Assembly: GCA_016868455.1 (NCBI GenBank)
Contig: VGGV01000003.1
Span: 62,001-126,000 of the forward strand
Direction: 5' to 3'
Source of the DNA: Bacteroidota bacterium
Lineage (GTDB): Bacteria > Bacteroidota > Bacteroidia > Chitinophagales > Chitinophagaceae
DNA length: 64,000 bases
Part shown: piece after piece, positions 33,648-60,975 of the stretch
Layout: each line of letters begins with the position of its first letter
Numbering within the stretch: position 1 is the first letter of the stretch
The notes under the pieces: model-generated
The model's input: only the letters and a program-made list of their open reading frames with translations
The model's database searches: none
What the model was told of the DNA's origin: nothing
Made by a program: the position numbers and the translations under genes

Positions 33648-35306
33648 CTATTTTTCCTGCAATACAACAAATTCCTGCTCCAGGCTGAGTGAGGCACTAT
33701 ACAATTGCTGTATAAAGTCACCGCCCCATTTTGCATAGTAATAAGAAAGGTTCTCCCTGCGCTCCTGCAGGCCCCCGCCGGGGAATAACTGTTCTTTTAT
33801 GGCATGTATCTGCCGCTGCTGGTCGGCAAATTTTCTTTTTTCGGCACGCAGCATTTTCTTTTCCAGTTCCTTCAAACGGAAAACGGTTTTTAATTTCAGG
33901 GCATCCACATGCTTCTCAAGAGTGCTGTCAACTGCAACTGCCTGTTTTTTGAATGATTCATAAAGTTGCTCCACTTCAGTGAGCGGGCCACCTGCCTGCC
34001 GGTCAGGCAGGTTCAGCTTTGTTTCATTTTTACTTTCCCTTTGCACCAGTTTATTCATCAGCTCCTGTTCCGGCAAAAAGAAATCTTCAGCCGTAAACCC
34101 AAGCCGGGCAATCTTCTCTTGCCATTTCTTTTCAAGAATCAAAAAAGAATTGCGCAGCACCAGAACAGGGAACGGGATCTTGTTATGATCAAACAGTTCC
34201 TTCAGTTGCAGCCAGTAGGCGGTTTCACCTGCCCCGCCGATGAATGCGATGTTAGGCAAAATGCTTTCCTGGTAAAGTCCGCGGAGTATTACATTCGGGC
34301 TGAATCTTTCAGGAAATTCCTTAAGTTCATCAAAAATCTCCTTTTCACTAAAAGTGAGTGGTGACCCGATAGCTATCGGGTTGTGAATAGTGAGTTGATT
34401 CTTTAATCTTACAATCCGTTCTCTCAAGTCATCTTTCAGATAAAACAAATTGATCTCTCTTGCATTCACCTGCGCCTTGTAGCCTGCCCTCTGCAGCCTT
34501 TCAGCAGTTTTTTCTACAATACCTGATGCAGTTTGATTCAACAGATCATCCCTGAAAACATCCATCATCTGTTTTTTCAGCGCCGCATTGTCCGGTAGCA
34601 GCACCACCAATCCGTATTCAGCAAACAGATGATTGACGAAGCGGAATGTGGCATCCTGAACTGTTGTGCCTTCTGTATAAAATTTTCTGAGCAATGAAAT
34701 GATCTCATCTCCCTGTGGCAGCACAGTTAACTGCCCTTCCATCCTGTCAATCAGTTTCAGCAGGGCCTTGTCAATTTTCATCCGGCCAACAGTGCCGGTC
34801 TGTTTGGTTTCCCAAACCAGCTTTTCGCCGCCGAGGTAAATATGGTTCAGCTCTTCAAGATCGGCATCTTCAGTGCCCAGGTAAAATACAGGAACGAAAT
34901 CTTGTTTGGAAAAAGATGTCTTTAAATGTTCAGCCAGTTTGATGGCATGAACGATTTTATAAATAAAATACAACGGCCCGGTAAAGATATTATTCTGATG
35001 AGCGGCGGTAATGGTGAAGGTATCAGGTGAAAGCAGGGATTCAATGTTATTTTTCACTGCACCAGTTGTTTCAACAGCTTCGTACTGCTTCTTTAGTTCA
35101 TTCACCAGTGTCTTCCTGCCTGCCTGTCCGGTAGTCAGATCTGTCTTAAATTGTTTTCTTGCCTCAATCGCTTTTTGAATGCCCTGTAATGTCGGAGGAT
35201 AAGCAATGAAAGGTTTCAGCGCTGCGGCCTGGTCAATATAATCCAGTGCAATTTTGGAAAATGCATGGGTTTGGCGATAAGGGAGCCGGGTAGTAATACA
35301 ATTCAT
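33648..35306 (-). CDS. bshC: Bacillithiol biosynthesis cysteine-adding enzyme BshC, with repeat-derived inserts
   Basis: A 552-residue BshC, which joins cysteine to glucosaminyl-malate in the last bacillithiol step. Conserved segments are the early QQAALKP-like region, FTITAAHQNNIFTGPLYFIYK, PVFYLGTEDADLEELNHI and the late IAFIGGAGETAYWLQLKELF. Typical members are about 530 residues. Extra length comes from three stretches encoded by palindromes: TTGQAG (about 35114-35137), NPIAIGS (34364-34381) and LPDRQAGG (33990-34012). The frame stays open across all of them, so the enzyme may still function if the inserts lie in loops. Confidence 0.9.
   Translation of the reverse strand: MNCITTRLPYRQTHAFSKIALDYIDQAAALKPFIAYPPTLQGIQKAIEARKQFKTDLTTGQAGRKTLVNELKKQYEAVETTGAVKNNIESLLSPDTFTITAAHQNNIFTGPLYFIYKIVHAIKLAEHLKTSFSKQDFVPVFYLGTEDADLEELNHIYLGGEKLVWETKQTGTVGRMKIDKALLKLIDRMEGQLTVLPQGDEIISLLRKFYTEGTTVQDATFRFVNHLFAEYGLVVLLPDNAALKKQMMDVFRDDLLNQTASGIVEKTAERLQRAGYKAQVNAREINLFYLKDDLRERIVRLKNQLTIHNPIAIGSPLTFSEKEIFDELKEFPERFSPNVILRGLYQESILPNIAFIGGAGETAYWLQLKELFDHNKIPFPVLVLRNSFLILEKKWQEKIARLGFTAEDFFLPEQELMNKLVQRESKNETKLNLPDRQAGGPLTEVEQLYESFKKQAVAVDSTLEKHVDALKLKTVFRLKELEKKMLRAEKRKFADQQRQIHAIKEQLFPGGGLQERRENLSYYYAKWGGDFIQQLYSASLSLEQEFVVLQEK
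33990..34012 (-). repeat. Palindromic repeat inside bshC (CTGCCTG...CAGGCAG family)
   Basis: Arms ACCTGCCTG and CAGGCAGGT with a 5-base loop; encodes LPDRQAGG in BshC. Copies of the same family are at 35411-35432, 56090-56105 and 60952-60975. Confidence 0.8.
34364..34381 (-). repeat. Perfect 18-bp palindrome inside bshC
   Basis: ACCCGATAGCTATCGGGT, a perfect palindrome, encoding NPIAIGS within the BshC frame between LTIH and PLTFSEKEI. A self-complementary sequence of this kind within a codon run is unlikely by chance. Confidence 0.8.
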
Positions 35307-35410: not shown

Positions 35411-35432
35411 ACCTGCCTACCGGCAGGCAGGT
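35411..35432. repeat. Palindromic repeat between bshC and the FAD dehydrogenase gene
   Basis: ACCTGCCTaCCGGCAGGCAGGT, the same family as the element inside bshC. It sits directly at the end of the FAD dehydrogenase gene (stop at 35433). Confidence 0.75.
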
Positions 35433-38935: not shown

Positions 38936-38968
38936 AACTCTTGGAGGGTTTAAAACCCTCCAAGAGTT
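38936..38968. repeat. Palindrome on the 3' side of the REP-associated transposase gene
   Basis: A perfect 16-bp inverted repeat AACTCTTGGAGGGTTT / AAACCCTCCAAGAGTT with a 1-base spacer. A close copy flanks the other side of the transposase gene. Confidence 0.85.
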
Positions 38969-38976
38969 TTCCGAAA

Positions 38977-39720
38977 CTACAAATCAAACCATTTATTCTT
39001 CGGCTCAATGGCCTGTTCATGATATTTTATAAAATTATCCAATCCTCCAAATACTTTAAGTACATAATTTCTTTCCAGTTTTGTCGGGCTCTTACTTAAA
39101 AATGTTTTGTAGGAACTGTGAGGCCACCTGTCAATCCCTTTCACAAACTGGTGGTGTGCTGGATTGGCGTGGATGTAATGAACTACTTTACAAAAAGATT
39201 CATCTCCGAAAACCTCTTCCGTTTTCATATTTGGCATAAACAAACTCCCCTTCCGTCCATACATTTTATTAATTGCCTGGGTATAACTGTTGAACAGGTT
39301 TGAAAAAGGCTGACTTATTTTTCTTATCAATTCTGTTTCGTTTAATTCTTCAGCAGGAAGTTTTACAGGTATGTTTCCCGCTTTTACCGACGATTGCTTT
39401 TCTTTTAGTAGCCGGAAATATACTGTCAACGTCTTACTGTCTGTTATCTTCAGCAATAAATGAAAGTGGTTTGGCATAAGGCAGTAGGCATAGATCTGTG
39501 CGACCGGCAGTACATGTTGGGAAAGACGGCCAAGAAAAAAATCATTGTTTTGATTTTCCTTAAAAATATTCTCCCACCCGTTGGCGTGGTTAAAAAGATG
39601 GTATGTTGAACCGGGCAGTATTTTTTTATCGTTTATTCTTAATTTTATGCGCCGGCGCTTATCTAAAACTCTTGGAGGGTTCAGAACCCTCCAGGAGTTA
39701 AAAACCGGATCCGGCATCAA
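38977..39720 (-). CDS. REP-associated tyrosine transposase (RAYT/Y1_Tnp, IS200-like fold)
   Basis: A single-strand transposase of the Y1 family. The HUH motif is present as YCLMPNHFHLLLKI, and the catalytic Tyr as VVHYIHANPAHH. RAYT proteins cut and move small palindromes in the host genome. It is flanked by two near-identical 33-base palindromes (38936-38968 and 39667-39699), the second within the extended ORF, so true translation probably starts downstream of it; the exact start is unclear. No other transposase gene is here. It separates the hydroxyproline epimerase from the sterol desaturase. Confidence 0.85.
   Translation of the reverse strand: MMPDPVFNSWRVLNPPRVLDKRRRIKLRINDKKILPGSTYHLFNHANGWENIFKENQNNDFFLGRLSQHVLPVAQIYAYCLMPNHFHLLLKITDSKTLTVYFRLLKEKQSSVKAGNIPVKLPAEELNETELIRKISQPFSNLFNSYTQAINKMYGRKGSLFMPNMKTEEVFGDESFCKVVHYIHANPAHHQFVKGIDRWPHSSYKTFLSKSPTKLERNYVLKVFGGLDNFIKYHEQAIEPKNKWFDL
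39667..39699. repeat. Palindrome on the 5' side of the REP-associated transposase gene
   Basis: AACTCTTGGAGGGTT / AACCCTCCAGGAGTT with one mismatch, the same element as at 38936-38968. It lies inside the extended transposase ORF and about 30 bases before the divergent sterol desaturase gene. Confidence 0.85.
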
Positions 39721-56012: not shown

Positions 56013-56034
56013 TGTCCCGCCAGATTGCGGGACA
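56013..56034. repeat. Palindrome just upstream of the TPP riboswitch
   Basis: TGTCCCGC / GCGGGACA with a 6-base loop. It ends two bases before the first riboswitch stem. Confidence 0.6.
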
Positions 56035-56035
56035 G

Positions 56036-56169
56036 GTTTCCCGGGGTGTTTGACACTGAGCCAGACGAAGGGCGCTTCGCCAGGCTTGTCTGCCGGCAGG
56101 CAGGTTCAGTGATTCAATCTGAGATCATACCCGTAAGAACCTGGTCAGGGTAATGCCTGCGAAGGGAAG
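56036..56169 (+). promoter_or_regulatory. TPP (thiamine pyrophosphate) riboswitch with an enlarged P3 arm
   Basis: The 3' half is clear: CTGAGATCATACCC, then GAACCTGGTCAGGGTAATGC and GCGAAGGGAA, the signatures of the THI element. The 5' half is TTCCCGGGGTG, whose TTCCC pairs with GGGAA to close P1. P3 consists of TTGACACTGA paired with TCAGTG/TCAA and holds in its end a 45-base block of nested palindromes (56058-56105). It ends 65 bases before the TonB-receptor ATG. It should bind thiamine pyrophosphate and reduce expression of the receptor. Confidence 0.85.
56090..56105. repeat. CTGCC...GGCAG palindrome within the riboswitch P3 arm
   Basis: CTGCCGGCAGGCAGG, the same family as in bshC, embedded in the variable loop of the riboswitch between two halves of an outer palindrome (CACTGAGCC ... 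TTCAGTG). Confidence 0.65.
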
Positions 56170-56234
56170 GAAGATCAATGCATCCTTTCTCCGACAGCGT
56201 TTCCCTCTTCTTTTAATTTTTAAAAAATTAAACC

Positions 56235-58391
56235 ATGAAGAGGATTTGTATGTCCGGCTGTTTATTGTTCACAGCCATTTTATCGGCTGCACAGCAGCCT
56301 GAAGCAAAAGACAGTTTTTACACTTTATCGCCGGTGGAAGTGAGAGCGGTAAGGGCCTCCGAAAATGCGCCGGTCACTAAAACCAATATCGGCAAATCAG
56401 CGATTGCCAAAATGAACCTCGGGCAGGATATTCCCTTTTTGCTCAGCCAGACGCCTTCTGTCGCGGTACATTCTGATGCCGGCAACGGCGTGGGCTATAC
56501 CGGCATCCGCATCCGCGGCACAGATGCCACACGAATCAATGTAACGCTGAACGGCATACCTTATAATGATGCCGAAAGCCAGGGAACATTCTTTGTTAAC
56601 CTGCCCGACTTTTCTTCCTCTGCAGGCAGCATACAAATTCAGAGAGGCGTGGGCACATCTTCCAACGGCGCCGGGGCTTTTGGCGCCAGCATCAACTTCA
56701 GCACCAATGAGGTGAATAAAGAGGCTTACCTGGAACTGAACAACAGCTATGGTTCTTTTAATACCCGGAAGCATACCATTAAGGCAGGAACGGGACTGCA
56801 CAAAAAATTTACGGCCGACCTGCGCCTTTCCCGCATCAGCAGCAATGGCTATATTGACAGGGCCGGCAGCAACCTGAAGTCCCTATACTTCAGCACTGCA
56901 TATATCAGTGAAAAGAATTCACTTCGCCTGAATATTTTTTCCGGTAAAGAAAAAACCTACCAGGCATGGTATGGAGTGTCAGAAGCTGACCTGAAAGCCG
57001 GCAACAGAACTATTAATTATGCCGGTACCGAAAGACCCGGCGAGCCTTACGATAACGAAACGGATAACTATACACAAACACATTACCAGTTTTTCTTCAA
57101 CCGGCAGCTGAGCAAAAAGCTGAGTTTTAATACGGCTTTCTTTTTTACTACCGGCAAAGGCTACTATGAACAATACAAAGCTGATGAAGACTTCTCCGCT
57201 TACAGCCTGCCTTACCCGGTAAGCGGTAACGACACCCTATTTGAATCGGATTTTATCCGGCAGTTGTGGCTGGATAATGATTTTTACGGCAATATTTTTT
57301 CATTGCAGTTCAAAGACAATAAAACACAGGCCACACTGGGCGGTGGGTACACCCGGTACGATGGCAATCATTTTGGGAAAATAATATGGGCTTCCCGGGC
57401 CAATATCACTTCCCACAAATGGTACGGCCTGGATGCACTGAAAACCGGTTTCAATATTTACCTGAAAGAACAAACACAGGTGCACCGGAACTGGAGCCTT
57501 TATTACGATCTGCAGTTTCGCCAGGTAAAGTATGATATGGATGGATTCCGTTACAATCCTGCACTAAAGGTGAATAACCGATTCAGTTTTTTTAACCCCA
57601 AAGCCGGTATTGTTTATAAAAAGAATGCATGGAAAGCTTATGCATCATACAGCGTGGCTGCCAAAGAACCCAACCGGGATGATTTTGAGGCCGGCAGTGC
57701 CCAGCAACCCAAACCGGAAAGACTATATGACACGGAACTGGGTATTGAACAGATAAAAAACCTTTACAACTGGTCGGTAACTTTTTATTACATGAAGTAC
57801 AGGAACCAGCTGGTGCTTACGGGTAAGATAAATGATGTGGGGGCTTATACAAGAACCAATATTCCCCAAAGCTACCGAACAGGTTTGGAAATGCAGGGAG
57901 TATTCAAATTCAGTTCCCGGTTCAATGCATCGGCCAACCTTGCCATCAGCAGCAACAAGGTGAAAAATTTTACGGAGTACATAGATGATTATGACAACGG
58001 TGGTCAAAAAGCCATTACTTATTCATCCGCCGATATTGCTTTCTCGCCTGCCGTGGTGGGCGGGGCCGCACTTAATTTTCTTCCCCTGAAAAGTATTGAG
58101 TTGAGTTTACTGAACAAATTTGTAAGCAAACAATACCTGGACAATACGCAAAATGAAAATCGAAGGCTGGATGCTTTTTTTGTAAATGACCTGCGGGGCA
58201 TTTATACATTGAAAGGCAAAAAGCTAAAAGAGCTGAATATTACAGCACAGCTCAATAACATTTTTGGGATAAAGTATGAGCCGAATGGCTATACTTTCAG
58301 CTATATTTATGGCGGAGAAATGATAACCAAGAATTATTATTTCCCGATGGCCGGAAGGAATTTTATGATTGCGGTGAGTGTGAGGTTGTAA
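56235..58391 (+). CDS. TonB-dependent outer membrane receptor, probably for thiamine or a precursor
   Basis: A 718-residue outer-membrane barrel: signal peptide (ending SAAQQ), TonB-box-like YTLSPVEVRAV, plug domain with IRIRGTDATRINVTLNGIPYNDAE and the barrel ending in a Phe/aromatic-rich strand (NFMIAVSVRL). No CarboxypepD-like domain, so it is not of the SusC class. The TPP riboswitch directly upstream makes thiamine or a thiamine precursor the likely ligand, as in other TPP-controlled receptors of Bacteroidetes. No inner-membrane thiamine transporter or thi gene is downstream. Confidence 0.88.
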   Translation: MKRICMSGCLLFTAILSAAQQPEAKDSFYTLSPVEVRAVRASENAPVTKTNIGKSAIAKMNLGQDIPFLLSQTPSVAVHSDAGNGVGYTGIRIRGTDATRINVTLNGIPYNDAESQGTFFVNLPDFSSSAGSIQIQRGVGTSSNGAGAFGASINFSTNEVNKEAYLELNNSYGSFNTRKHTIKAGTGLHKKFTADLRLSRISSNGYIDRAGSNLKSLYFSTAYISEKNSLRLNIFSGKEKTYQAWYGVSEADLKAGNRTINYAGTERPGEPYDNETDNYTQTHYQFFFNRQLSKKLSFNTAFFFTTGKGYYEQYKADEDFSAYSLPYPVSGNDTLFESDFIRQLWLDNDFYGNIFSLQFKDNKTQATLGGGYTRYDGNHFGKIIWASRANITSHKWYGLDALKTGFNIYLKEQTQVHRNWSLYYDLQFRQVKYDMDGFRYNPALKVNNRFSFFNPKAGIVYKKNAWKAYASYSVAAKEPNRDDFEAGSAQQPKPERLYDTELGIEQIKNLYNWSVTFYYMKYRNQLVLTGKINDVGAYTRTNIPQSYRTGLEMQGVFKFSSRFNASANLAISSNKVKNFTEYIDDYDNGGQKAITYSSADIAFSPAVVGGAALNFLPLKSIELSLLNKFVSKQYLDNTQNENRRLDAFFVNDLRGIYTLKGKKLKELNITAQLNNIFGIKYEPNGYTFSYIYGGEMITKNYYFPMAGRNFMIAVSVRL

Positions 58392-60951: not shown

Positions 60952-60975
60952 AGCCTGCCTGCCGGTAGGCAGGCT
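60952..60975. repeat. Palindromic repeat of the CTGCCTG family near the ferredoxin gene
   Basis: AGCCTGCCTGCCGGTAGGCAGGCT, nearly symmetric; fourth copy of this family in the window. Confidence 0.75.

What the first reader, a model, noticed from the sequence alone, without database searches (positions are those of the whole stretch)
56036..56169. TPP riboswitch with nested palindromic repeats inside its P3 arm
The P1 closing stem, CTGAGA and GAACCTG core are conserved, but P3 is extended by about 45 bases made of an outer palindrome (CACTGAGCC ... TTCAGTG) with a CGAAG...CTTCG stem and a third element (CTGCCGGCAGGCAGG) inside it. The inner element has copies at 33990-34012, 35411-35432 and 60952-60975. 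Mobile palindromes appear to have colonised the variable loop of a riboswitch without breaking the aptamer, so the riboswitch serves as a tolerated landing site.
Basis: partly seen in the sequence, partly recalled or inferred. Interest (0 to 1): 0.8.

Follow-up and report, generated by a model that had tools for sequence, protein, structure and literature searches.

The report
Mobile palindromes inside a vitamin riboswitch
A vitamin B1-sensing RNA switch of a Chitinophagaceae-like bacterium carries two scattered DNA palindromes, one inside the other, in one of its variable arms, and related bacteria show such palindromes in variable arms of three kinds of riboswitch.

Summary
The TPP riboswitch is real (window 56032-56185, RF00059, 50.1 bits, E 4.8e-9, though below the curated 54.3). 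Its P3 arm is about 50 nt longer than usual and holds two nested palindromes. The inner one, E2 (CCTGCCTGCCGGCAGGCAGG), is a dispersed repeat: 42 matches in the genome at <=3 mismatches, none for the reversed pattern. It is absent from the matching hairpin of seven relatives, so its insertion is well supported. The outer one, E1, is a hairpin of two copies of a REP-like core (TGAGCYTGYCGAA) dispersed in the genus. E1 units also occur in other TPP arms, in 5 of 23 SAM riboswitch arms plus one variant (nested in each other in two sister species), and in 1 of 14 cobalamin riboswitches. Two pairs of close relatives share near-identical leaders but different arms. Against it: the exact double-E1 geometry occurs almost only in P3, so that part may be an old, inherited insertion; no transposase was linked to E1 or E2; ligand binding is untested. 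Entry at hairpin tips is inferred.

The parts
56032..56185 (+). TPP riboswitch aptamer (RF00059)
   Evidence: cmscan 50.1 bits, E 4.8e-9, model 1-105; the only RF00059 match at E <= 0.001 in the genome
56048..56119 (+). P3 arm, enlarged
   Evidence: P3 basal pairs GUUUG/CAAUC (one U-U mismatch) from the cmscan alignment
56054..56070 (+). E1 hairpin, 5' arm (CACTGAGCCAGACGAAG)
   Evidence: core within 2 mismatches of dispersed TGAGCYTGYCGAA; same hairpin in P3 of G010, G026, G032, G115, G397, G359
56071..56074 (+). E1 apex, 4 nt
   Evidence: 4-nt spacer in all seven clear double hairpins as found, which did not ask for it
56075..56085 (+). E1 hairpin, 3' arm, first part (CTTCGCCAGGC)
   Evidence: the 3' arm is interrupted by E2
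56085..56104 (+). E2 palindrome nested in the 3' arm of E1
   Evidence: 2 mismatches to CCTGCCTGCCGGCAGGCAGG; 42 matches per strand in the genome at <=3 mismatches, 0 for the reversed pattern
56105..56111 (+). E1 hairpin, 3' arm, last part (TTCAGTG)
56013..56034 (+). third palindrome TGTCCCGC-N6-GCGGGACA, overlapping the 5' edge of the aptamer match
   Evidence: only copy in the window at <=4 mismatches; copy number in the genome not tested
56235..58391 (+). gene under the riboswitch: TonB-dependent receptor, 718 aa
   Evidence: Pfam Plug PF07715, E 9.1e-10
33990..34013 (.). E2 copy with one extra base, inside the BshC gene
35412..35431 (.). E2 copy, 1 mismatch
60954..60973 (.). E2 copy, 1 mismatch

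Best explanation
A TPP riboswitch in front of a TonB-dependent receptor gene of a Chitinophagaceae-like bacterium has had its P3 arm enlarged by dispersed REP-like palindromes: first an E1 hairpin (two inverted copies of a REP-like core), later E2, inserted into the 3' arm of E1. Shown: both repeats are dispersed families; E2 is missing from the matching hairpin of seven relatives; the aptamer core is kept; E1 units recur in variable arms of TPP, SAM and cobalamin riboswitches of the genus, in two sister species one nested in another. Inferred: such elements enter, or survive, at the tip of a stem, because a self-complementary insert only lengthens the stem and leaves the ligand pocket alone; they are moved in trans, perhaps by a single-strand (Y1/RAYT-type) transposase; afterwards they drift while keeping most base pairs. 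Arms of close relatives can thus be exchanged while the cores stay nearly identical. Ligand binding by the enlarged RNA is expected but untested.
For: Full-length aptamer with P3 insert. E2: 42 matches at <=3 mismatches, 33 at <=2, reversed control 0. E1 core at <=1 mismatch in 25 of 42 genus genomes, 303 matches in sum (my addition) against 6 for the reversed control; 134 cores read in 110 loci have a TGTCA tag in 62 and flanks that pair (positions 2 and 3: 83 and 81%, shuffled 35 and 40%). TPP arms with E1 cores in several genera. One dispersed E1 copy proved to lie in P3 of a SAM riboswitch (G013); then E1 cores in 5 of 23 SAM arms and one variant, with a nested unit in G034 and G041 where sister G023 has one unit. 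Two exact E1 cores in the cobalamin arm of G041, absent in sister G034, whose riboswitch is identical over the first 95 nt and at 78 of the last 81 columns. 10 of 63 TPP and SAM arms carry a core at <=2 mismatches; shuffled arms mean 0.07, at most 2 in 300 rounds. G003/G026: leader identical at 60 of 66 and 162 of 171 columns around P3, arms at 14 of 50.
Against: The exact double-E1 hairpin occurs outside P3 in only one (G041) of the 8 genomes that have it, of 22 searched, so as a unit it is not visibly mobile. Degenerate forms in G028 and in three species of g92, the latter in one well supported clade with carrier G359, point to inheritance for part of the set. The double form lacks the TGTCA tag (read). 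Of 100 E1 loci scanned with Rfam only 1 copy lay in a known RNA. None of the 5 Y1 transposase loci of the genome holds E1 or E2. The long arm does not by itself explain the low covariance score: four other double-E1 riboswitches score 54.9-66.4. The pattern-matched leader G205, which I had counted as a single-unit case, has no RF00059 match at E <= 1e-4. The free fold (-52.1 kcal/mol) beats the aptamer-constrained one (-44.2). No expression or ligand data.
Confidence: 0.7

Rival explanations
1. The E1 hairpin is an old P3 extension of the family, from one ancient insertion, inherited and often lost; only E2 is a later insertion.
For: Same orientation, position and 4-nt apex in all seven clear cases; the geometry is almost confined to P3; degenerate, mostly paired forms in G028 and g92, g92 in one clade with G359, and clear plus degenerate carriers together more clustered on the tree than shuffled labels (as low in 19 of 500).
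Against: Six clear carriers need 6 changes on the receptor tree, at least 4 forced by well supported branches (losses would count too); one carrier beside short-armed congeners in g36 (7 of 9 short) and g87 (6 of 7 short); near sister G003 of carrier G026 has an unrelated arm; single units in other TPP, SAM and cobalamin arms cannot come from that ancestor.
Confidence: 0.3
2. The enlarged arm is selected: the hairpin has a job (protein binding, RNA stability, tuning of the switch).
For: E1 cores are denser in TPP and SAM arms (12 matches in 1,768 nt) than in a rough non-coding part of the flanks (4 in 8,684 nt); 86.5% of hairpin cells are paired.
Against: 29 of 40 TPP arms of the genus are short and differ in sequence; arms carry different numbers and orientations of units; pairs with changes on both sides (3 of 15) are no more than shuffles give.
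Confidence: 0.12
3. Chance: an ordinary variable P3 loop that happens to resemble repeats.
For: P3 of TPP riboswitches varies in length and sequence in this genus.
Against: Reversed and shuffled controls at or near 0.
Confidence: 0.02

Closest known systems
Rickettsia palindromic elements (RPE) in tmRNA and RNase P RNA (Ogata et al. 2002, as cited in PMC2229807; passages of the latter read; the original was not held)
   Same: Dispersed palindromes inserted in structured RNAs, thought to be neutral for function; also inside protein genes
   Different: RPE are 105-146 bp, in Rickettsia, in RNA genes; here elements of about 20-40 nt in riboswitch arms of Bacteroidota, in three riboswitch classes and nested
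BOX element between two T-box riboswitches of the pneumococcal trp operon (PMC3049150; passages read)
   Same: Dispersed repeat forming a composite leader with riboswitches that still seem to work
   Different: BOX lies between riboswitches, not inside an aptamer arm
GTAG/CGTC-tagged REPs, BIMEs/REPINs (PMC3733652 and PMC6006769; passages read)
   Same: Short dispersed palindromes with a short tag at one end, often as inverted pairs, some families inserted within other palindromes
   Different: E1 has a TGTCA tag, not GTAG or CGTC, and no transposase gene flanked by it was found in this genome
Canonical TPP riboswitch RF00059
   Same: Core helices and motifs
   Different: P3 about 50 nt longer and made of repeats; P3a missing; score below the gathering score

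Membership tests
TPP riboswitch (RF00059) | Covariance match with P1, P2, P4, P5 and the conserved core | tested here: met
   Model 1-105, E 4.8e-9, 50.1 bits; two non-standard pairs among those tested
TPP riboswitch (RF00059) | Score at or above the curated gathering score | tested here: not met
   50.1 against 54.3; G010 (50.1) and G032 (48.3) also miss it, double-E1 arms G026, G115, G397, G359 pass with 54.9-66.4
TPP riboswitch (RF00059) | TPP binding and control of a thiamine-related gene | not testable with these tools
   The gene is a TonB-dependent receptor by its Plug domain; its substrate and TPP binding were not tested
REP / BIME elements | Many dispersed short palindromes in one genome | tested here: met
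   E2: 42 matches in G000; E1 core: 5 in G000, up to 37 in relatives
REP / BIME elements | GTAG or CGTC tag at one end | tested here: not met
   E1 has TGTCA in 62 of 134; no constant tag seen for E2 by eye in 15 loci
REP / BIME elements | RAYT gene flanked by the same palindrome | tested here: not met
   5 Y1_Tnp matches in G000; no E1 (<=3 mismatches) or E2 (<=5) in any of the five fetched loci; relatives' transposases were not examined
Rickettsia palindromic elements | Sequence relation to RPE families | not tested
   No RPE sequence was compared

The most novel reading that the evidence does not exclude
Variable arms of riboswitches are preferred, not merely tolerated, landing sites: REP-like elements of Chitinophagaceae enter at the tips of existing stems (riboswitch arms, terminator loops, other copies of themselves), because the moving enzyme acts on single-stranded hairpins, so that the periphery of riboswitches evolves by repeated capture and loss of mobile hairpins.
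Probability: 0.3. Interest if true: 0.78.

Novelty: new variant of a known kind. Interest (0 to 1): 0.6.

Why it matters
Peripheral arms of riboswitches vary greatly in length and sequence between relatives, and to my knowledge (recalled, not searched) the source of that variation is seldom traced. Here one concrete source, dispersed palindromes, is visible in three riboswitch classes, with nested and sister-species comparisons, so it can be tested at the bench and counted across genomes. It also shows that a riboswitch whose arm has been filled can fall under the curated search threshold, as here.

Tried and rejected
Rejected: chance (controls). Rejected as a case: the Nitrospirae match L123, which I read as a chance match in an ABC-transporter-like coding sequence (by eye), leaving 7 TPP matches of 8. 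Weakened: G205, a pattern match with a single E1 core in its arm, was not found by cmscan at E <= 1e-4 and is not counted as a confirmed riboswitch. Led nowhere: linking E1 or E2 to a RAYT-type gene of the same genome; finding the E1 letters in print (0 papers; 6 papers, none about bacterial repeats by title); a constant orientation of units in SAM arms (both occur); (301 papers, 10 listed, none relevant by title).

Hairpin-tip test on dispersed E1 copies: stems outside the unit are slightly longer than with shuffled partners (87 isolated copies: 2.59 against 2.17, highest of 300 shuffles 2.49). The effect is small and may partly be the element's own ends; kept as a hint only.

Rows dropped: G008 (arm not read by my expression) from TPP arms; the second SAM match of G041 (fragment) from SAM arms; G001 and G036 have no TPP match. 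From the trees: G397, Terrimonas and G008 (no frame or arm found) and, by choice, G029b, G102, G272, G370, G205. The count was made against other labelled rows only; the counts given here are those, against all other rows. Of the 30 loci, 20 went to Rfam; the TPP copies themselves were not among the 80 further loci.

Full report
What was checked. The window is G000:C3:62001-126000 of a 2.64 Mb genome. cmscan at the curated threshold lists only a tRNA, but over 401 bases it finds RF00059 at 56032-56185, 50.1 bits, E 4.8e-9, all 105 positions, with a 60-nt insert in P3. It is the only RF00059 match of the genome at E <= 0.001. The gene after it, 56235-58391, is a TonB-dependent receptor (Plug domain). 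The score is below 54.3. In the genus the matches score from 48.3 to 70.8; three are under the threshold, G000, G010 and G032, all with the E1 hairpin. The long arm alone is not the cause, since double-E1 riboswitches G026, G115, G359 and G397 score 59.6, 54.9, 57.7 and 66.4.

The inner element, E2. CCTGCCTGCCGGCAGGCAGG has 42 matches per strand at up to 3 mismatches and 33 at up to 2 in the genome, against 0 for the pattern read backwards; the pattern is its own reverse complement, so both strands report the same places, and two listed places overlap. It occurs in 25 of 42 genomes of the genus. In the P3 arms with a comparable E1 hairpin (G010, G026, G032, G115, G397, G359 and the degenerate one of Terrimonas pollutisoli) E2 is absent. 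E2 is therefore best read as a later insertion in this lineage, between CAGGC and TCAGTG of the E1 hairpin.

The outer element, E1. The arm TGAGCCAGACGAAG-GGCG-CTTCGCCAGGC..TCA is a double form of the core TGAGCYTGYCGAA. The 15-base core CTGAGCYTGYCGAAG at up to 1 mismatch occurs in 25 of 42 genus genomes, 1 to 37 copies each, 303 in sum by my addition, against 6 for the reversed control; genomes with 1 or 2 copies may be chance. I read 134 cores at up to 1 mismatch in 110 loci: the unit is TTGTCA-YNC-TGAGCYTGYCGAA-GNR, TGTCA exact in 62 of 134, with flanks that pair far above shuffled partners at positions 2 and 3. It is a tagged imperfect palindrome of REP type. The listing was cut, so these loci come mostly from the genomes listed first.

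TPP riboswitches of relatives. RF00059 matches 40 of 42 genus genomes, 41 matches. Of 40 arms read, 29 are 12-23 nt. E1 double hairpins are in G000, G010, G026 and G032, a degenerate one in G028, a single unit in G013. In the family a pattern with a P3 of 42-72 bases matches 16 of 394 genomes in 12 of 101 genera; with 11-41 bases it matches 236 of 394 (listing cut). By eye, of the 16, G000, G115, G397 and G359 have the double form, G013, G205 and G370 a single unit, G132, G259, G207 and G272 a degenerate relative, and 5 (G089, G100, G102, G136, G194) none that I recognise. cmscan confirmed those of them that I gave it (G359, G115, G397, G132, G370, G013) except G205. A pattern scan of the GTDB collection, which asked for GAAG-N4-CTTCG in P3, gave 8 matches; 7 are TPP riboswitches in records titled Bacteroidetes, Chitinophagaceae or Terrimonas, the eighth lies in a coding sequence.

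Other riboswitches. Scanning 100 loci with dispersed E1 copies against Rfam found one copy inside a known RNA: the SAM riboswitch of G013, in P3. I then searched SAM riboswitches in the genus: 24 matches in 21 of 42 genomes. Of 23 arms read, E1 cores at up to 2 mismatches are in G013, G023, G034, G036 and G041, and G026 has a related variant (TCATCCTGAGCGCAAGCGAGGA) in its second copy. In G034 and G041 one unit sits in the loop of another, whereas their sister G023 has the outer unit alone (read; sisters by the receptor tree). In 15 genomes chosen mostly for being rich in E1, 14 cobalamin riboswitches were found; that of G041 holds two exact E1 cores in a variable arm. That of G034 is identical over the first 95 nt and at 78 of the last 81 columns but has other sequence in between. 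In the flanks of these loci 1 core at up to 2 mismatches was found in 40.9 kb.

Numbers. 10 of 63 TPP and SAM arms (1,768 nt) carry a core at up to 2 mismatches; shuffled arms give 0.07 on average and at most 2 in 300 rounds. The 1.4-kb flanks of the riboswitch loci hold 11 cores in 164 kb; a rough non-coding subset holds 4 in 8.7 kb, which predicts about 0.8 in the arms. That rate rests on four copies and a crude gene mask; TPP was chosen because of the finding; and the ten arms are not ten events: the SAM arms of G023, G034 and G041 are one lineage and the four double TPP hairpins may be fewer than four events. The excess is clear against shuffles and only suggestive against non-coding DNA.

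Insertion or inheritance. For E2 and the single units insertion is well supported. For the double E1 hairpin the evidence is mixed. For insertion: six changes on the receptor tree for the six carriers that could be placed, at least four forced by well supported branches (48 rows, bootstrap rough, losses count too); one carrier beside short-armed congeners in g36 and g87; and G026 and G003, whose leaders agree at 60 of 66 and 162 of 171 columns around P3 while the arms agree at 14 of 50. For inheritance: the exact two-core geometry occurs in 8 of 22 genomes searched, in seven of them only in P3; orientation and the 4-nt apex are constant; degenerate but mostly paired versions exist, those of g92 in one clade with G359; and clear plus degenerate carriers together are more clustered than shuffled labels (as low in 19 of 500). 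An old insertion with repeated loss, and repeated building from single units, cannot be told apart here.

Structure. In the 12-row alignment of double hairpins (the window's row with E2 left out) 86.5% of cells form standard pairs, against 26-46% when the partners are slid; 3 of 15 pairs have changes on both sides, no more than shuffles give (311 of 500), while the covariation score exceeds all but 1 of 500 shuffles. Forcing the aptamer pairs leaves P3 as one long branched hairpin at -44.2 kcal/mol, against -52.1 unconstrained; the folding programme neither supports nor excludes function.

Literature. TPP riboswitch with repetitive extragenic palindromic gave 1 paper, whose passages treat the two apart; riboswitch with palindromic and RAYT gave 1 unrelated paper; riboswitch with REP element, insertion and variable loop (three of four terms) gave 23, 10 listed, none on this by title; riboswitch with miniature inverted-repeat transposable and aptamer gave 1, unrelated by title. 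Only open-licence papers are held. Precedents seen as passages: RPE in tmRNA and RNase P RNA (PMC2229807), BOX between two T-boxes (PMC3049150), REPs within palindromes (PMC3733652), REPINs and Y1 transposases (PMC6006769). STRR repeats in cyanobacterial RNase P RNA are recalled, from no call.

Noticed in passing
window 33990-34013: An E2 palindrome lies inside the BshC gene (552 aa, bacillithiol synthesis), in the part matched by its coiled-coil domain, so E2 may also be tolerated within proteins, as RPE are in Rickettsia; of 15 other E2 loci looked at, L050, L060 and L061 also have the copy in an open frame of over 400 aa.
   Followed up: partly
window 56013-56034: A third palindrome, TGTCCCGC-N6-GCGGGACA, abuts P1 of the aptamer; its copy number in the genome was not tested.
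   Followed up: no
L166, about base 250 of the reverse complement: An E1 unit in G010 sits in the loop of what looks by eye like an intrinsic terminator (AAAGTCCCC ... GGGGGACTTTTATTTTT).
   Followed up: no
L045 and L046 (G000:C19): Two uninterrupted Y1-type transposase frames of 171 and 174 aa with different short palindromes beside them (CTCCGCAGGAGTTGA-like and CCCCGAAGGGGTT-like, by eye).
   Followed up: partly
G001:C39:54665-54786: Four E2-like palindromes in a row, 34 bases apart.
   Followed up: no
window 38936-38968 and 39667-39699: A 33-base palindrome AACTCTTGGAGGGTT..AACCCTCCAAGAGTT present twice (91% alike), 731 bases apart.
   Followed up: no
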